Notes under the pieces: model-generated | The model's input: the letters and a program-made list of their open reading frames with translations, nothing else | Databases searched by the model: none | What the model was told of the DNA's origin: nothing | Origin: Halichondria panicea | Taxonomy: Eukaryota > Porifera > Demospongiae > Suberitida > Halichondriidae | Direction: 5' to 3' | Assembly: GCF_963675165.1 (NCBI RefSeq) | Contig: NC_087388.1 | Span: forward strand, 3,078,800 to 3,142,799 | DNA length: 64,000 nucleotides | Translations under genes and position numbers: made by a program | Shown: piece after piece, positions 25,461-36,653 of the stretch | Position numbering within the stretch: position 1 is the first letter of the stretch | Layout: each line of letters opens with the position of its first letter

Positions 25461-28400
25461 TTACGTGAATCCCCCATGGGACTGATGAAGATGACCGTAG
25501 CACTCTCCTGAGCTGCTAAAAAAGGCAAGGCAGTGCCAACAAATGTGCGACTTGCAACTTCTACAAGCCACGTGAGCACATCCTCCATACTTCTCGATTG
25601 GAGTGTTGCACTTAGGACAAAGCTTCCTGTTTTCTGCATCGTCCTGCAACCAAGAAGTCAATCCTTCATCAGGATTACCAGAAGATTCATTTTGTGCACA
25701 GGTAAGGCCACAATGGAAAGGTTGGTGACAGTTGGTGCAGGTCAGTACACCACAGTGATTGCACAAAAAACACTGCCCCTCTTCTGTGACAGTATAAACC
25801 ATACCACAATCTGGGGTGGGGCAATTGTGCACCTGATCGTTGTTTGCTGTTATGTATGCACGGACAGACTCTGTAATTACTGTCTGTAGATTCAATTTTC
25901 CCTTTGATTTGAGATTTTCAAAGTCTTGCCATACAAATGGACGAGAACATCCTTCAGCAGCACATTGGATTGGAATTGTGATTGTATTTGGTGTAAGCTG
26001 TGCTTCTACGCACTCACAGTGGTACGCATGTCCACAGTCCTCAAGTCTATATACACTTTCCGTGTCATCGATTAGAGTGTAGCAAGCACAGCACATAACA
26101 TCACCAGCAAGGGAATGAACAATCGGAGTATTGGTGGAATTTTCTTCACAAAATTGCTCAATAATATCCGTAAGCACTTTGTATCCGGTATCAGAGGCAA
26201 AAAGAATTAGTATCTGTTTGCGAATGTCAACTCTAACCATTTCAATTCCGGACTGTGTCATAAGCAATCTTAAATCAATTCCGAATGTAGTTATAAGGAA
26301 TTTTAAAAGTCCAGGAGGTCTTCCAGTTTTCTTCAACTCAATTTCATAATAACTTATCCCAATTCCAAAAGAAAGAGATTTGTCAAATTCTGCCTTAGCT
26401 TTTGTAATGTTTTCTTTTATACCATACATTTTAATACATTTGAGTCGAAAATCCCTACGAATAACAGTTAAGCTGATCTCCTCAATTTTCTTTATGTCTT
26501 CTTCACATCTTTTTGATCTCATGTACTCAAAACGAAGTTGGTCCGAGCATTCTATCACATCTGGCTGTAGAACAGAGTTCAATGCTTTTAAAGCTGCAAC
26601 GAATTCAGTTGGATTACTTGATTCGACCTTTACAATTACAACGTCTCCTTTCTTGGAGTTGGTTACCTTTACGGACCTATAGTCAGCTTTGACATTTTCA
26701 GTTGCTTCGTACACCGATTTCTGAACAGCTGCGTACAGTGTTGGGGAGAATTTAATGCTTGACGAAAGAAAACGATGGATTTTGATTGGCTTGTAGTTAA
26801 TGCGAGCATTATTTAATGTATCTATTGCTGTCATTCCTTCATCAATGCTTGTAAAATTCACAAAGGCTACAAAAAACTTGTGATAATTTTCAGGCATTAG
26901 AAGTTTGAGGTTAAACTTTTCTTTAGCAATGGGACCCATAAGACTGTGTAGAGTCTCTTGCAGCAGTTCATGCTCTTCTTCGGTAGTTTCAAATACTTTT
27001 GTGTAAGCAAATATCACATCATAACTGCCTCTAGGGTAGCCTAGTGGGGTCAAAATTATATCAAACTCATTTCGGATTGCTTCTTCAGGAATTTGAGGGG
27101 GTACATTTGATGTGTAAATATGGCATTCATTATGCTTTGATATTCGGAATCGCAATACCACACCAGCAATGGCAGCACCATGGTCGGAAAGATGAGTAAA
27201 GATTGTAGTTATATGAGGTGTTCGGAAATCAAGATTCACAAAGTTTTTGCGGTCTCTTCTGTTCCACTCCATCTTTATAGTAAGATAAGATACATTAAAC
27301 CGATCTTTTTTTCTTGGGAGAATCGGCTGGATACAAACTCCAGTTGGGGTCGTTAGTTTACTTGCTTTTTCGGCATCATTAGAATCATAGAAAGTCACGA
27401 ATAAGCGCCTTTCTTTTGTGAAAACCTGTTTCTGGATGGCGCCACAACCGCTAAGCGTTTTTGTGAGCTCTTCATTCCAATTACCAGTTACAGGCCCCTT
27501 AGCAACCAAACAGCGATATTGATGAGGCATCAGAATTTTAACAGTAACGCCTCCACTTCCAACAAGCACTCTGACATTGTCACCATCTGCGGTTACACCA
27601 GCCTCAGAACAGAACATATTTAGCTCAAGTTTGATGTGACTTATATAGTGCTCCAGGTGTTTCTGCACCAGTTTACGAAAACTGTTTTGTACAAAGACTT
27701 TCAGAGTACCATTCTTCTGACTAGCATCAATCTGAACTCGATTCAGGGAAGTAAATGTAGGATGATCAAAGAGAGACCTTTGGTTGTGAACAACAGTGTC
27801 AAGTACATATGTTCCAAGGTGCTCAACAACAAATGGTGATACTTCTAAGTTTGTAAACTGCTCACATTTCATGGGGTGATGTCGTATCAGTCCAGACTCA
27901 AGTGCTTCTTCCACCCACTCTTCTCTTACTGGCAAAACTTGAAGGAGAAAATGCTGAGAGGTTCTTAAAGTTTTTTCATAAATGAGAAACTTGGGCTGGA
28001 TATTCAGTTTACACAAAGAAGATCCTGGGAAAATGACAAGCTTCTCGTCTGGAAGGTTTGGATTAAAGTAACCAACTTTCTCATGCCCAAGAAACACACA
28101 TAGATTGTTTGCAAATGATTTAAAGAAGAGTTTAGCTACCTTGTCTATTGCCCTTTCGAAAGATAAGGTGCTTGTAGCAATTGGTACTTTTAGCTGTTTC
28201 TTGACTATCACAGTGAGATCTTTGATCGTTTCGTCTACGATACGCATGCTCTTTGCATTAATACTGTTTTTCACACACCAAGCATTGCGCTCTTGACGAG
28301 AATTAGATACCCATTGGCAATAGGCATTGAAATCAGTTAGCTGGTCGCCTTCAGGGACGCAAAATGTGCTCTTCAACAAATCACTTTGCTCCTTATTCTG

Positions 28401-31400
28401 ATCCGTTCCACCTCGAAAGAAAATAGTGCTAGCTAGGGAGGAAATAGCTGCCATGGCAATTGCTTCTGACCCAGCTTTCTCAACAAATCCATCTAGTATA
28501 ATCTTTGCTAGTCTTGGATCAACAGGGAGTGCAGCCATTGATCTGCCAATATTTGTGAGCCTGCCGTTACACACAGCACCAAGGAACTCTAGAGTTTCAA
28601 CAGCATATATCAGAGCAGCTTCTTCCGGCTTTTCAATGAAGTCAAAACCGAGTACATCTGTGATTCCAAGTTCATGCAACTTAAGAACTGTGCCAGCCAG
28701 TGACACTCGTAGTATTTCAGGAACCATTCTTTCTGACATATTCTTGTATGTGTCCTCCGAGTAAAGACGGTAACACTTTCCCGCACTTGTTCGTCCTGCT
28801 CGACCTTTTCTCTGTTCAGCGGAGCTCTTACTAATATCTCGAACTTCAAGAGAGTTCATGTTCTTCTTCGCATCAAAGCATAGTTCCTTGACAACACCGG
28901 AATCCACAATGTATTTTACTCCAAGAATGGTAATCGATGTTTCAGCCACATTAGTGGAAAAAATAATTTTTCTTTGAGGATAGTCCTTGAAAACTTTCTG
29001 CTGATCTTCTGGTTGCAGCTTACCGTGTAGAGGCAGAATACAAGCTGTGTTTTTAGTACGCATTTCCAATGTCTGGCAAGCACGTTCGACTTCACCAGGG
29101 GAGGTAAGAAAGACAAGGATATCACCTGGGGGTAGGAGTTGGTAGATAATATGCTCGAGATTTTACCTATTATTTTTTATGCTCAGGTTCTTTTTAAATT
29201 GCCTACAAATCGCCTTATTCCCACATTCCTCCAAAGTACAACACAAACCACACCCCATGTTGTCACATCAAAATGGCCACATGCACGACTCTATCTCTTA
29301 ATAACATTATGATATAGAATGCCAAGGAGATAATTATCCACCAGTATTTCTACAAAGTAATGACAAATTGTTTATACTAAGACCTAAACCTGCCTATATT
29401 CCCATAATTGTTAAAGGTGCCCATCATGCCAGCATAATTCTCACCAAAAACATGTGCATACTATGCTCAAGCATTATCTACCAACCCTACCTGGGGGTTC
29501 ATTCTTGTGCAGTGTATCGGCATAATCTATTGCTCCAGCAACATACACAGGCATCCCTCTTTGCGAGTTCTGACTGGTTGTGATAGGGCAGTACGTCACA
29601 TCTACAGGAAATAATCGACCTGGCACAGTCTTTACTGGACAATCCTGGCCGAAGTACTGCACAAAATTCTTTGGGTCAATAGTAGCTGATGTGATGACTA
29701 CTCTAAGGTCTGGGCGTGTTGGAAGACAACGCTTGATGAACGCTAGTAACACATCAGTGTTCAGGTTCCTCTCGTGAGCTTCATCCACTATCAGGCAAGA
29801 GTACTTGGAAAATGTTGGATCTTCAACACACTCATTTAGTAAAGTGTGATCAGTTACGTATAGCATGTCAGTATCCTCTGAATAGTTACCATGGATGCCT
29901 GTTTTGTATCCAACAATTGTTCCAAGAGAGGCAAACATTTCTGAGCTAACATACTTAGCAAGAGAGATAGCAGCCACCTTTCTCGGCTGTGTGCACACAA
30001 TAACACCTGCACTTGCAAAGCCATCCTCATAAATGTACTGAACAAGCTGTGTGCTTTTTCCAGAGCCAGTTTCTGCCGTTAGAATGCTAACCTGGTTATT
30101 TCTGATAATTTCCATTATCTGCTGTCGATGTGAGTATATCGGAAGTCCTTTATTATACCTCAAGCATTCACACTTTAATCTCCTTTCAAATAGTTCTGGA
30201 GGAGGAGATGGTAAGCTATAGCTGCGAGCAAATTCACACAATTTTTCACAGGCTGTGTTAAACTCAAATTGTCTGCACTGAATCTCTGACATCTCAAGTG
30301 CTATTGATGTCTTTTTCTCTTGCAATGTTTGAAATAAAGTTAATGAGCATTTTTTCGGAATCAGAATCTGAGTTTGCTCCTGTTTGAGCTGAGAAATTCG
30401 TTCTTTGCATTTTGTTCCAGTGCTTTCTTGCTCATACTTGATTCTAAGTAATAGATTGTCAACAGACGAACACTTCTGATCATATTCAGGCTTGTTGGAA
30501 GCTGCAGAGTTAATACGTGCAACGCTCTTGTGCCTTTTCTTTTTCTGTGGTATGTCTTTTCCATCAACAATGACAGACTTCAATACTTTCTGTGACACTT
30601 GATGTGCAAGTTGTTGATCAGTTGGTGTATTGGAGGGACGTTTTTTCTTTTTCTGTGGTAAGTCACTTCCATCAACAATGACAGGCTTCAATACTTTCTG
30701 TGACACTTGATGTGCAAGTTGTTGATCAGTTGGTGTATTCGAGGGTTGTTTTTTCTTTTTCTGTGGTAAGTCACTTCCATCAACAATGACAGGCTTCTGT
30801 GACACTTGATGTGCAAGTTGTTGATCAGTTGGAATATTCGAGGGTTGTTTTTTCTTTTTCTGTGGTAAGTCAGTTCCATCAACAACGACAGGCTTCTGTG
30901 ATACTTGATGTGCAAGTTGTTGATCAGTTGGTGTATTTGAAGGTTGTTTTAACAGTTCTTTCTTTTTCTGTGGTATGTCACCATCCAGAATGACAGACTT
31001 CTGTGATAAATGATGCGGAAGTTGTTGATCAGTTGGTGCTAGTGTGTTCAAGGGTTGTTTTAAGGAAGCTGTTATAGTCCTGCCATCCATACAATAACCA
31101 TTAAGATGTGTCACAGCTCTCTCGGCACCTTCATTTGACTTAAAGTTTACCCAGGCATACTTGTTTTTGGAGCCCTGAATAAAGGGCTTATTAACAAGCT
31201 TTCCATGTTCCTCTACCAGTTTAGTGAGCACATCTTGTGTTACACTTTTTGGAAGGCAAGTAATTTTGACTGTTTGTGGCGTCTTTGTTGAATCAGATTG
31301 CAAAGTTGAGCAACATTGTATTGCGCTTGTAACTGGTTCTATGTTTTCACTGTGTACCACTGAAAAAATGTAAAGCTTAATTACTAAGGAGGCAACCATA

Positions 31401-34400
31401 AGATATTGATCATTCCTGTACCTGTTGCACTTTGATTCACTTCACAAGTATTGTTGAAGTCTCCATTCTCATCAGAGACTACTTTCTAAAATTGAAAATA
31501 ATAGCAATAATTAATTCGTACAAGTATATGGTTTAGGGTTTAGCTTACTTTATGGGGGTCATAACGACAGACACCATCAACCAGAAATTTGTACTGGTAT
31601 TGACCAACAGGCAGAGAAACTTTGATGTAGAATCCTTGTTCACCTCTGTATTTATAATTATACTTGATGCGATGGTAACGTAAATAACTGTCATACAGAT
31701 ACATTGAAAATCAATACGAACTGACTATAATGCTCGACCAGAGGACGCTCCTGTATAAAGGCCGCTTCTCAAATAGTAGCCTCCATTAATTACCAGCAAA
31801 ATGATTAGCAGCCGCTCTCAAATAGTAGCTTCAGTGAATATTAACTCAAGCATTTCTGCACGTGGAAGCCATATTTACTATAGCTACATGTAGCTATATA
31901 GAAGCCTATAGAAATTCTTACTTATACTTCATTGATCTTTGAGCAACTGTAGCACTCCACACACACACCACACACGTACACACACACACAGACACAATAC
32001 TACCGTATACCTCGCTTGCGCATGCGCACCATAAAGGCATTAATGAGTGCGGTCAAGAAGTCACAGCAATTTATAGCTTATTCTGCCTTGGTGCACTCAC
32101 GCACAGCAAAGATAAAGGATTGGAAACGGAAATGACCTCGAATAAACCATCTGTGTCGCCCCGGTTTTATTCGAGGCTGTCTATACACTCCAACGTGGAA
32201 AGAAAATCCAGGCTAGAAACGGTCCGGTTGAGGAAACAAATGATAACAAAACTGCTGCTGCATGAACGTATTGGTTATGTATATCTACTACCCAGTCAAT
32301 AATTAAACCGCTTGTAGCACGAATTGCCATGTAATGTACTTCGTTGTCAGTTACGGTAATACGTTTGGTTTTCTTGTTGATTTTTGTGAACTATAAATGC
32401 TATATGCTACATGTAGAAGTTTGTGGCACATATATAATAGGTGTATCATTCTGTATGACAAGTATCAATCTTCAAAACATCTTGCAGTGGAAGCTCTGAG
32501 CGATCATCAAGTTACTAGAAACAACACAGACTATAGTAGTCATTTTAGACGTCCAAAAACACTTCTAGTTCTGTGTTTTTGCTCTTATGCTTGTTACGAT
32601 TCTGGAGGGTGACTCAAAGCGTTTTTTTCTTTCCAGGCTATTAAATAAACGAAGTAATAATAATTATGTAGACTAACTACAGTCAGAGCCAAGGATAACA
32701 GCCTTTTGTGAGCTTTCAGTAGCCTTTTTCAAAACATCTCTTTGAGCCGCCCTGCATATACAGTAGACAGTAGACTGTACTTACAGTGCAACAACCAAAG
32801 AGAGTAGAACTTTTGTTTTTTTTTACGTTTTTGTGTATATCTTCTAAACTAAATGTGATTGGATCAATTTGAGTGCAGGTACTGAAAGTTCAACTATTGG
32901 CGCTTCCAGTGGACCACCACCTGTTACATCATATGACATTATCATTCCAAAATGGCTGCTAGAATATGTGTACATTGGAAAATATGTTAGGCATGGAACT
33001 ATCTTATTTGTTTGAGTTAAGATCTGAAATTTGTTGTGCAAGTACTTCATTACCTTGCACATCTTTTGAGCTCCAGCGGAAGTGCAGGCTACTGGTAGGT
33101 TCTGAGATACACAGAATTTTGCAAATTTTTAGTAGCAAATGTGCTAGGCATTGATTTTTTGAGTTTATGCTAGTTAAGGTCTGATTTTTGAGGAGCACGA
33201 ACTACAATAGTAGATCTATACTTTTCATTTGTACTAACTTACAGGAGCTAGATCAGTCTCTTCTTTGCTAGAGGGGAGGCCCTTTTTGTCAAAAATGGTG
33301 AGTTTAGCTGCGTAGTAGTGTAAATTGCCACGCCCCTGTGACACATATGACTGATCAACTGGGTGTAGTTGCCAGGTTAGACATCACATGAGCTTGGATG
33401 TAGCAAATAAAGACAAGATGATTTGTGATGTCACAAATCAATGAATATCATTGCTACGTCACAAAATGGGCAAAGAGCAGCAAAATCATTTTTGACAAAA
33501 AGGGCCGCTCTAGCAAAGAGACTGGTCTAGCTCCTGTAAGTTAGTACAAATGAAAAGTATACTATTGTAGTACATGCTCCTCAAAAATCAGACCTTAACT
33601 AGCACAAACTCAAAAAATCAATGCCTAACTCTACTAAAAATTTGCAAAATTCTGTGTATCTCAGAACCTACTAGCTAACAGCCTGCACTTCTGCTTGAAC
33701 TCAAAAGATGTGCAAGGTAATGAAGTACTTGCACAACAAATTTCAGATCTTAACTCAAACATATAAGATAGTTCCATGCCTAAGCCATTTTGGAATGATG
33801 ATGTCATATGATGTAACAGGTGGTGGTCCACTGGAAGCGCCAATAGTTGAACTTCAGTACCTGCACTCAAATTGATCCAATCACATTTAGTTTAGAAGAT
33901 ATACACAAAAACGTAAAAAAACAAAAGTTCTACTCTCTTTGGTTGTTGCACTGTAGCTATCTAGTAAAAGTATCTATTTAAGCCACGAAATGTCTACTCG
34001 ATCTCCGTTTCAGTTGGATCTTACGATTACTAGATCTAGCTAGCTCATGAATAATTAATGAGCAAACGGTTTACCGTAACTTTAAAACAATAATTATTAT
34101 TGCACTATAACTGCATGGAAACCATGCATATAAAATCCTACTATTTCTGCCTTACTATTTTAATGGCGGTTTTTCTCAATAATGCAATTTCATAGCAACC
34201 AACTTCAAACGATCATAAACTTAGTCATAGAATGAGGTATGTACACACTTAGCATAGCATTGCGTAGGCGTTTGTGTGCTCTATCACCACATACATGTAC
34301 AGAGATCTCGATCAAGCCAATTAAGTGGTCCCTATTCTCAAATTGCATCATTAGGATAGAGTAGTACAGTAGTTTATCCGGTCACCCGTGCAGGTTGACC

Positions 34401-36653
34401 GGAATAGCGAGGTAGCTGTATATTTCAAAACATAGCCACGGCTAAATAACGGTCCTACGTCGAATCTAATAGCAAGCGAGTGGCCGCATTTCAGGGCGAG
34501 TTTTGCATAGTAAAGATCAAGCAATCTGTGCCAAAAAATAACAAGTATAATTATGGAGGTGATCGTACTTCAGAGAGCCGGATTAGCGAGAGTCTACGGT
34601 ATAGTTCAGCTTAGGGTGCTGTATGTAGTTTGCACTGCAATGGCTGGCAAGAATCTAGTAAACCACAGTATGCACTGATAACTCCCCAGAAAAAGGAGAT
34701 CGTTGGGGATTGGGTTGCAGTTGGTTAACCCTTCCCCTCTGGCCTCTGGGAGGTTTTAGGGCAGCTAAAAAGCGAGAACATCAATGCTTTGTGAGTTAAA
34801 GGAGGATCATAACTACATGTAGATAGGAAGCTACCTTTCAGAGGTCAAGCTAGAGACCATGTTTCTGGACATGGACAGTGGTACGTTACCATTTGTAGCC
34901 CTGATAGGGTTTGCTTAGGCTAGTTAGTACACAATTAAGTGAACATCATTGAATTTGTAGCCTAAGTGTATGCATTTCCTGGGAAAAGGGCGTCTGCCAA
35001 TAGGACCTCACACACAAGTTTCTGCAGATCTTATAGAGAACACTTATAATAGTGTCTTTAGTCCTTAACACACACTTAATTATTGTTTGAGTATGTTTCA
35101 ATCTATGACTAATTATAACTAGTGTTCAAGCTGGCGCTGTGCTAATGCCTCTCGCCATGTTTTTGCTTTCGCTTAAAAGTATTAGAGTGTTATATTAGTA
35201 TTAAAGTTAGCTTATCTATATAAAGTCACTGAGAAGAAAAGACTTATTTACATGCATCTATTGTTGTATTATGTGGCTTACCAGGATCTCAAGAAAGAAG
35301 AAAATTGATTCTTCCAGGATCTGTAGTTCAGTGTATATAATATCTAAGAAGAAAAGACCTGTGTACATGCATATTGTTATCTATATTGTTATATGGTAGT
35401 GTTTTGTGGCTTATATACCAGGCCCTCAAGACAAAGATGATTCTGCCAGGAGGATCTTGGGATATTATTTTCTCACACATGGGGAATGAGCGCGCATGCG
35501 CATTACATCCACAGGAATAATTAAAGGGTGTGTCCAAAGAGATCAATTTCACAAATGGCTACTGCTAGCTAGCTGTTTTAAAAGATATTTTCTGAGTATT
35601 GTAGCTAACAAAAAGCTAGTGTTTTAGTGCAAGGCTAACTCATATGTTGAATAGAAAGTTTGTGCGGACAGATGATGCTATGAAAGATTCTGAAGAGACT
35701 GCAACAGCCTTCAATGTGAGTCAAACTAGCCATAACTCGAGAAAGAAGCTTTAGTTTGCTAATCCACGAATCAAAATCCAAGAGAACGTGGCTAGAAGCC
35801 TATAGAAGCTGTTAGTTTTCGTTACATTGCAACCGTTGAGCAGTTATAGCTGGAATACACACACACACAGACACACACACAGTCAGCTTTACCGTATCCC
35901 TCGTGCGGCTACGCCTCGAGGCATAATTAGTGCGGGTGGTTCGTTGCTAGGTAATAATAATGGTGTCGAGATACCCCTGGGGTCTGGGCTATTCAAAGTA
36001 GCCAGAGAGGCACATAAATTTACCTTCAGCTAGTAAGAGGGTTTGTCTCACTGCAGAAAATTTATAGCCCAATCAGATTTCAAGCTGAAGGCGTGGATAT
36101 GAATGAGCCAGTAAGTAGTACTATACCGTAAACGTTCTAATTATAGAACCAGTAAAAAATAATTATTTTTCTAGAAACAATGTACCCAACAAAATGATTT
36201 TATATGGTGGTATTATGGGCGTTATAAAAGAGGGCGTCCTACCCGAGGCTGGTTCTATAATTGGAACGCTTACAGTATTCGAGCTTTGCCGTTAACGCCC
36301 ACCATGATTAATAATCACACCCTAAGTATAAAAACTCGTACCCTGATATGCATGGCATGGCGTGGTTCTCAATCCTACGTGAGCGTCCAAGGTTGGGCCA
36401 TTAAATCACAAGCACCTTAATTAATTAATAATTATTTAGCACAAACTAGGTCTAGCACAAACTGTAGCTACCAATACCCAAACAGTCATGCAGGGACACC
36501 ATAAATTATACAGATATAGAGATATATAATTTCTAGCTATACAACTTCTTACTTCTTAGCCATTGGTCTTCCTGGCTGTTTCCAGTCATCAAAGCTTCCA
36601 AGAAGGAAAACTTCACTACCCTCAGCCTCCCAAACGAAAGTATGCAGCGCCAT
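25461..36653 (-). CDS. CBM48-RRM-DEAH helicase-RBR ubiquitin ligase fusion
   Basis: Predicted RNA helicase and E3 ligase in one chain. Exons 36553-36653, 31549-31645, 31422-31485, 29491-31359 and 25461-29125 join to 5796 nt (1931 residues). Domains: residues 1-87 resemble the AMPK-beta glycogen-binding module (FVWEAEGSEVFLLGSFDDW, then LPVGQYQYKFLVDG); 118-187 an RRM; 189-364 about five Lys-rich tandem repeats; then a DEAH helicase with GSGKST (519-524), DEAH (613-616), SAT (645-647), STNVAETSIT (from 767) and QRKGRAGR (815-822), followed by HA2/OB-like and RRM-like regions. RING1-IBR-RING2 starts near 1719, with the likely catalytic Cys 1893 in YGGCAHV. Helicase plus RBR matches the plant DEAH11/DEAH12 layout. 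The CBM joins through a 4.9-kb transposon-filled intron, so exon 1 is the weakest link, though its phase and homology fit. Function is unknown; RNA-triggered ubiquitination is an inference. Confidence 0.9.
29126..29490. other. Helicase intron 4 (365 bp)
   Basis: Interrupts the codon for Gly711 in the helicase core. No repeat or RNA feature recognised. The acceptor follows CCTACCCCCAG. Confidence 0.8.
30530..31057 (-). repeat. Coding tandem repeats in the helicase gene
   Basis: About five units of roughly 32-39 codons with consensus QPSNTPTDQQLAHQVSQK then (VLK)PVIVDGSDLPQKKKK. The DNA copies are nearly identical in the middle three units and more diverged at the ends, so expansion is recent. 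Units differ by an optional VLK insert. Confidence 0.92.
31897..32051. mobile_element. (CA)n-carrying element, 3' part
   Basis: GCCTATAGAAATTCTTACTT, TTGAGCAACTGTAGC, CA tract, CTACCGTATACCTCGCTTGC, then CATTAATGAGTGCGG. 5' part missing or diverged. In helicase intron 1. A one-sided piece of MITE family A follows near 32108. Confidence 0.65.
32784..33953. mobile_element. Foldback element (1.17 kb) with arms of about 515 bp
   Basis: Left arm about 32784-33298, right arm about 33487-33953, inverse and closely similar. Ends CAGTGCAACAACCAAAGAGA / inverse, flanked by TA on both sides, as for Tc1/mariner-type insertion. The loop of about 190 bp has no coding sequence. In helicase intron 1; transcription across it would give a long RNA hairpin. 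Confidence 0.88.
34367..34603. mobile_element. Dispersed element (GCCGGATTAGCGAG end), copy 1
   Basis: Shares AATAGCGAGGTAGCTG, GGCGAGTTTTGCA.. AGCAATCTGTGCCAAAA and AGAGAGCCGGATTAGCGAGA with 59430-59671 in the same order. In helicase intron 1; the remaining stretch 34604-35620 shows no recognised feature. Confidence 0.7.
35630..35936. mobile_element. (CA)n-carrying element, copy
   Basis: AAGCCTATAGAAGCTGTTAG, GTTGAGCAGTTATAGC, CA tracts at about 35857-35880, and the end TACCGTATCCCTCGTGCGGC..GAGGCATAATTAGTGCGG. Confidence 0.7.

What the first reader, a model, noticed from the sequence alone, without database searches (positions are those of the whole stretch)
25461..36653. One protein joins a glycogen-binding-type module, RRM, DEAH helicase and RBR ubiquitin ligase
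The sequence shows, in one open frame over five exons, an AMPK-beta-like CBM48, an RRM, Lys-rich repeats, all DEAH helicase motifs, and RING-IBR-RING2 with a candidate catalytic Cys (1893). Plant DEAH11/DEAH12 proteins have the helicase-RBR half; a CBM48 in front is not an arrangement I know. It suggests an enzyme that senses RNA, and possibly a polysaccharide or a CBM-bound partner, and ubiquitinates in response, perhaps in innate defence. The role is inference.
Basis: partly seen in the sequence, partly recalled or inferred. Interest (0 to 1): 0.85.

Follow-up and report, generated by a model that had tools for sequence, protein, structure and literature searches.

The report
Sugar-binding-type module on RNA-helicase ubiquitin ligase
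An animal gene, probably of a sponge, encodes one protein that puts a glycogen-binding-type module in front of an RNA-binding domain, an RNA helicase and a ubiquitin ligase, and two PARP14-like genes of the same genome carry a similar front end, which hints at a shared way of aiming RNA-linked tagging enzymes at their targets.

Summary
Five GT-AG exons give one open frame of 1931 residues with AMPK1_CBM (2.7e-21), RRM_1, DEAD, Helicase_C, KH_DEAH11 and IBR matches in order. The catalytic half fits the known, ancient Helicase (Plant I) RBR subfamily. The new part is the front. In the same genome two tandem PARP14-like genes also begin with CBM48 then RRMs, with the same first three intron phases (2, 0, 1); the nearest RRMs are reciprocal best matches. 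The phase-2 and phase-0 introns also lie in the AMPK-beta gene, so the CBM is most simply of AMPK-beta origin. CBM identity (35%) and tree (p-AU 0.253) do not settle whether the fronts share one origin. The window's CBM has Cys in place of the second sugar-contact Trp, so glycogen binding is doubtful. I propose an RNA-engaged ubiquitin ligase aimed by a CBM48-RRM front. A role in defence is inference. No eukaryotic collection was held, so spread to other species is untested.

The parts
36553..36653 (-). Exon 1: start codon and first part of the CBM48 (ends in phase 2)
   Evidence: in-frame TAA upstream; GTAAGA donor
31549..31645 (-). Exon 2: middle of the CBM48 (ends in phase 0); holds Lys53 and Cys60 (Trp133 position of AMPK beta-1)
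   Evidence: (31.2 bits alone)
31422..31485 (-). Exon 3: end of the CBM48 (ends in phase 1)
29491..31359 (-). Exon 4: RRM, Lys-rich repeats, first helicase half
31070..31264 (-). RRM_1 (residues 120-184)
   Evidence: 6.5e-15; reciprocal best match with a C16 PARP14-like RRM
30535..31038 (-). Lys-rich tandem repeats, unit about 99 nt (33 residues), with QKKKK runs
29666..30127 (-). DEAD/DEAH ATP-binding domain (residues 499-652): AETGSGKST 516-524, DEAH 613-616, SAT 645-647
25461..29125 (-). Exon 5: second helicase half, HA2/OB-like part, about 500 residues without a domain match over cut-off, KH, RBR, stop
26142..26345 (-). KH_DEAH11 domain (residues 1638-1705), the only match listed in the genome
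25515..26096 (-). RING1-IBR-RING2 (residues 1721-1914)
   Evidence: ARIH1, 6.3e-15
25578..25580 (-). Codon of Cys1893, candidate thioester-forming Cys of RING2
32782..33955 (.). Foldback repeat inside intron 1 (arms 32782-33262 and 33516-33955), a dispersed element; not part of the protein

Best explanation
A member of the ancient helicase-RBR ubiquitin ligases that carries an AMPK-beta-type CBM48 and an RRM at its N-terminus. Most likely mechanism: the RRM, the KH domain and the DEAH core engage RNA; ATP-driven movement of the helicase exposes or places the RBR; RING1 takes E2-ubiquitin, ubiquitin passes to Cys1893 of RING2 and then to a nearby substrate. The CBM48-RRM front acts as the aiming piece that brings the enzyme to a particle holding RNA together with a CBM ligand, which may be an alpha-glucan but, with one Trp lost, may equally be a protein. 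Shown by sequence: the architecture, intact motifs, and a like front on PARP14-like genes. Inferred: splicing, RNA coupling, ligase activity, the ligand and the surveillance role.
For: Domain content; the helicase core matches DEAH RNA helicases (1.5e-112 to a putative splicing factor, 6i3o; 1e-110 to PRP22) and the RBR matches ARIH1 with Cys aligned; KH_DEAH11 links it to the helicase-RBR family. CBM48 then RRM recurs in two tandem PARP14-like genes with equal intron phases, whose RRM is the reciprocal best match, with PARP frames behind, and macro and WWE in copy B (candidate join). RNF213, an E3 that restricts intracellular pathogens, also bears a carbohydrate-type module, CBM20 (PMC11549300, passages).
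Against: No transcript, activity or binding data. The CBM has Cys in place of Trp133. CBM identity between the window and C16 genes is only 35%, lower than that of the C16 CBMs to AMPK-beta (44-46%); the tree neither shows nor rejects common origin (p-AU 0.253), and the window row has a long branch. The RRM grouping is weak (79/80). In RNF213 mutation of the predicted sugar-binding residues did not change recruitment, which its authors call ambiguous. Structure predictions were useless (pLDDT 35.7 and 32.3).
Confidence: 0.5

Rival explanations
1. The CBM48 is only a protein-docking or folding part, with no sugar role; the enzyme is an ordinary RNP-associated helicase-RBR ligase for RNA quality control, without any part in defence.
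For: Trp133 position is Cys and Leu146 is Asn; helicase core closest to splicing DEAH helicases among solved structures; residues 68-123 of AMPK beta-1 bind glycogen debranching enzyme even when glycogen binding is mutated (PMC6274970, passage).
Against: The Trp100, Lys126 and Asn150 positions are kept, and W133L only partly disrupts binding in AMPK; a like front lies on PARP14-like genes.
Confidence: 0.3
2. A glycogen-directed ligase: the CBM48 holds alpha-glucan and the RBR ubiquitylates the glucan or proteins on it, somewhat as HOIL-1 or the laforin-malin pair in mammals.
For: AMPK1_CBM at 2.7e-21; the RBR ligase HOIL-1 targets unbranched glucosaccharides (PMC9016349, title and start of abstract in the listing).
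Against: Second sugar-contact Trp lost; RRM, KH and an intact DEAH helicase have no place in this scheme; the RBR is closest to ARIH1 and ARIH2 among solved structures, with chain 8eaz (HOIL-1 by its molecule name, as I recall that name) far weaker at 4.4e-6.
Confidence: 0.12
3. Two genes: exons 1-3 make a small CBM protein, and the RRM-DEAH-RBR protein starts at its own ATG.
For: Intron 3 is only 62 nt; reading through it meets a stop after 12 codons, and an in-frame ATG lies in it ahead of exon 4 (read). The C16 RRM exon also begins with ATG.
Against: Standard splice sites and unbroken frame; the same CBM-then-RRM order with equal intron phases in two further genes.
Confidence: 0.08

Closest known systems
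Helicase (Plant I) RBR subfamily, Arabidopsis DEAH11/DEAH12 type
   Same: DEAH helicase followed by KH_DEAH11 and a C-terminal RBR; subfamily reported in unikonts and bikonts with repeated loss in animals (PMC2904391, passages)
   Different: An AMPK-beta-type CBM48, an RRM and Lys-rich repeats in front. Whether other animal members have them could not be tested
AMPK-beta CBM48 (glycogen-binding domain)
   Same: 76-bit AMPK1_CBM match; phase-2 and phase-0 introns as in this genome's AMPK-beta gene (C6 read by eye; AMPKBI beside it)
   Different: Trp133 replaced by Cys; no AMPKBI domain in the protein
PARP14-like genes of the same genome, C16 2979220-3004766
   Same: CBM48 then RRM, first three intron phases 2, 0, 1; reciprocal best RRM match
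   Different: They continue with PARP and, in copy B, macro and WWE domains instead of helicase and RBR
RNF213
   Same: E3 ligase with an N-terminal carbohydrate-type module and an ATPase engine
   Different: CBM20, dynein-like AAA core and RZ finger instead of CBM48, DEAH helicase and RBR; no CBM_20 match in this genome at E 0.001
PARP14 / DTX3L pair of vertebrates
   Same: An ADP-ribosyltransferase and an E3 that share RRM-KH parts (PMC13224862, passages)
   Different: DTX3L has RING and DTC domains; the domain list given there has no helicase and no CBM

Membership tests
Helicase (Plant I) RBR ubiquitin ligases | DEAH helicase core with motifs I, II, III, V, VI | tested here: met
   (DEAD, Helicase_C over cut-off; HA2 and OB under it); motifs read by eye; 1e-110 to PRP22
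Helicase (Plant I) RBR ubiquitin ligases | C-terminal RING1-IBR-RING2 with catalytic Cys | tested here: met
   Cys1893 and His1895 align with ARIH1. Activity not tested
Helicase (Plant I) RBR ubiquitin ligases | KH_DEAH11 domain between helicase and RBR | tested here: met
   (48.8 bits). That it marks the subfamily rests on the Pfam name
Helicase (Plant I) RBR ubiquitin ligases | Place inside the subfamily on an RBR tree | not testable with these tools
   No helicase-RBR relatives were obtained (none in viral and prokaryotic contigs)
Glycogen-binding CBM48 | CBM48/AMPK1_CBM by profile | tested here: met
Glycogen-binding CBM48 | Sugar-contact residues Trp100, Lys126, Trp133, Asn150 (PMC4032982, passage) | tested here: not met
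   Three of four kept; the Trp133 position is Cys60
AMPK beta subunit | C-terminal AMPKBI domain | tested here: not met
   Not among the families; in the genome both matches lie beside the C6 gene
PARP14-like | Macro, WWE and PARP domains | tested here: not met
   None among the 22 families matched by the window protein
RNF213 | CBM20, AAA core, RZ finger | tested here: not met
   Not among the 22 families, save sub-cut-off AAA_22 and AAA_19 matches on the helicase P-loop region

The most novel reading that the evidence does not exclude
A CBM48-RRM cassette, built from AMPK-beta-type exons, works as a common address tag that sends both a ubiquitin ligase (window gene) and ADP-ribosyltransferases (C16 genes) to the same RNA- and glycan-bearing targets, so that this animal writes ubiquitin and ADP-ribose on one cargo. 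It would be an independent counterpart of the vertebrate PARP14-DTX3L pair and of RNF213's CBM20.
Probability: 0.15. Interest if true: 0.85.

Novelty: new variant of a known kind. Interest (0 to 1): 0.6.

Why it matters
A module known for linking AMPK to glycogen sits in front of enzymes that handle RNA, ubiquitin and ADP-ribose in one animal genome. Together with RNF213's CBM20 it suggests that animals have joined sugar-binding-type modules to intracellular tagging enzymes more than once. That makes a question testable: do such modules read sugars on invaders or stores, or have they become protein docks? In print: a search for CBM48 with PARP14 found 0 papers; of the 15 papers shown of 31 and the 10 shown of 713, no title or abstract start tells of such a fusion. 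These searches cover open-licence papers only, and unlisted papers were not seen.

Tried and rejected
Structure prediction: two AlphaFold jobs on stretches of exon 5 without an alignment, residues 1595-1931 and 1120-1640, gave mean pLDDT 32.3 and 35.7. They say nothing, so no fold search was run. The CBM spans three exons and was not submitted, because that tool takes proteins read letter for letter from the DNA.

Relatives elsewhere: scans of viral and prokaryotic contigs with the exon 5 protein, a search that reaches close relatives only, found none. No eukaryotic genome collection was on hand.

A second helicase-RBR gene in the genome: none seen. KH_DEAH11 matched only the window gene. In the search with the helicase-to-RBR protein (31 matches) no other place holds both helicase and RBR matches. 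Three of the other IBR places were opened (C11; C17; C2): by reading, none of these frames holds a helicase. The rest were not opened. RNF213-like CBM20 in the genome: none at E 0.001.

Shared origin of window and C16 CBMs by tree: unresolved; one clade not rejected, p-AU 0.253. Faster change of the CBM+RRM part than of the PARP part between the two C16 copies: 46 nonsynonymous and 20 synonymous codon differences against 53 and 42, Fisher p 0.099, not significant.

C16 RRM part to PARP part: the two open frames are 59 nt (copy A) and 43 nt (copy B) apart. A CAG/GTGGGT donor with a CATCCTACAG acceptor would join them in frame in both copies (introns of 113 and 97 nt), but 37 and 35 GT-AG pairs fit the frame, so the join is a candidate, not shown.

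RRM and IBR on C17 within 5 kb: an RS-rich RRM frame and an RBR frame on opposite strands. C11 IBR near a CBM: opposite strands. A cox1 fragment with two in-frame TGA fits an animal-type mitochondrial code and no more.

Full report
The gene. Reading the minus strand, five exons (36653-36553, 31645-31549, 31485-31422, 31359-29491, 29125-25461) join with GT-AG introns into one frame of 1931 residues ending in a stop. The third codon before the ATG is an in-frame TAA. The spliced protein matches AMPK1_CBM at residues 5-85 (76 bits), RRM_1 at 120-184, DEAD at 499-652, Helicase_C at 702-823, KH_DEAH11 at 1638-1705, IBR at 1797-1853 and IBR_1 at 1875-1914; HA2_N, HA2_C, OB_NTP_bind and zf-RING_2 (RING1) stay under their cut-offs. 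Exon 2 alone scores 31.2 bits against AMPK1_CBM in the genome scan, so exons 1 and 3 add about 45 bits. That is strong evidence that the exon 4.9 kb away belongs.

The catalytic half. Among solved structures the helicase core is closest to DEAH helicases of splicing (1.5e-112 to a putative splicing factor, 6i3o; 1e-110 to PRP22). Motifs I, II (DEAH), III, V and VI are intact by reading. The RBR is closest to ARIH1 (6.3e-15) over all three parts, with Cys1893 and His1895 in the ARIH1 positions (that these ARIH1 residues are catalytic is recalled). Marin's survey (PMC2904391, passages) describes a Helicase or Plant I subfamily found in unikonts and bikonts and lost in many animal lineages. The half is thus of a known kind, and the only one seen in this genome by its KH_DEAH11 domain.

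The front half. AMPK1_CBM has 10 matches in the genome, from 12 candidates scored. They lie in the window gene, a gene with AMPKBI beside it (C6), two tandem genes on C16, and places on C11, C5 and C13. The C16 genes (copy B 3004766 to 2993917, copy A 2993031 to 2979220) run CBM48, RRMs, then a long frame ending in PARP; in copy B that frame also has a macro domain and two WWE stretches. The join from the RRM frame to the PARP frame is a candidate only: one good donor-acceptor pair fits in both copies, among 37 and 35 pairs that keep the frame. They are PARP14-like by content; Pfam's own PARP14 KH model matches one only weakly (0.077). The genome is rich in PARP places: of 56 matches listed, only the two of these C16 genes lie within 100 kb of a CBM match.

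Common origin of the front. In the window gene and both C16 copies the CBM is cut by introns in phase 2 and phase 0 and followed by one in phase 1. The phase-2 and phase-0 introns are also in the AMPK-beta gene on C6 and in the C11 and C5 modules (read by eye), so the module is most simply of AMPK-beta type. The phase-1 intron was not seen at that place in C6, C11 or C5, though the ends of the C6 and C11 third exons were not worked out. The window's RRM finds the two C16 RRMs best (1.1e-9 and 2.6e-9; next gene 0.0016), and the C16 RRM stretch finds the window's best outside its own pair (3.5e-8; next 0.0055). Against this, CBM identity between window and C16 is 35%, no higher than to other CBMs (30-40%), the CBM tree is unresolved (one clade not rejected, p-AU 0.253; window branch long) and the RRM grouping is weak (79/80). 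Two separate captures of AMPK-beta-type exons are not excluded.

Does it bind glycogen? PMC4032982 (passage) names Trp100, Lys126, Trp133 and Asn150 as the critical residues of AMPK beta-1. PMC6274970 (passage) reports that W100G and K126Q abolish binding of the isolated module while W133L partly disrupts it, and that W133A among others ablated glycogen's inhibition of AMPK. Of eight CBMs aligned, six from this genome and two from the PDB, seven keep both Trp; the window copy alone has Cys at the second (the more distant C13 module was left out of that alignment). Binding is therefore doubtful for this copy and more likely for the C16 copies.

Mechanism and rivals. The best-supported reading is an RNA-engaged, ATP-driven RBR ligase with a CBM48-RRM aiming piece. 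The architecture is shown by sequence. RNA-dependence, ubiquitin transfer and the CBM ligand are inferred from the families. The link to defence rests on the PARP14-like genes with a like front, on the roles of vertebrate PARP14 and DTX3L (PMC13224862, passages), and on the CBM20 of RNF213 (PMC11549300, passages). That paper also reports that mutating the predicted sugar residues did not change recruitment, a result its authors call ambiguous; it warns against reading such modules as proven sugar sensors. A glycogen role like that of HOIL-1 (PMC9016349, title and start of abstract in the listing) is possible but leaves RRM, KH and helicase unexplained.

Limits. No eukaryotic collection beyond the window's own genome was available, so I cannot say whether the fusion is species-specific or widespread. 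Scans of viral and prokaryotic contigs found nothing. Structure predictions failed for lack of an alignment. The organism was not identified; genome searches note that only the best candidates are scored, so absence there is not proof.

Noticed in passing
G000 C16 2979220-3004766 (loci L001-L004): Two tandem PARP14-like genes begin with CBM48 and RRMs; the PARP frame of copy A lacks the macro and WWE part that copy B has.
   Followed up: yes
window 32782-33955: A foldback element of about 1.17 kb with long inverted arms sits in intron 1; twelve full-length matches at 84% identity or more, the window's own included, and 118 matches in all (40 of 244 candidates scored) are listed in the genome.
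   Followed up: partly
G000 C5 6900500-6902794 minus (L007): A Tudor domain frame lies just upstream of a CBM48 with the same first two intron phases and a stop soon after: perhaps a Tudor-CBM48 gene.
   Followed up: partly
G000 C11 3073650-3075860 plus (L005): A nidogen-like (NIDO) frame is followed within 2 kb by a CBM48 with the same first two intron phases; whether they are one gene was not settled.
   Followed up: partly
G000 C2 6327072-6342454 (L013, L014): DEAH helicase parts in frames of 933 and 3646 aa, the latter with long repeats of the SEPSQEAHPHT type.
   Followed up: no
G000 C15 692184-770253 and C13 153043-204850: Two clusters of many PARP catalytic-domain matches, an expansion worth a look.
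   Followed up: no
G000 C1 5280527-5280718: A cox1 fragment with two in-frame TGA codons inside a large contig, probably a mitochondrial insertion.
   Followed up: no
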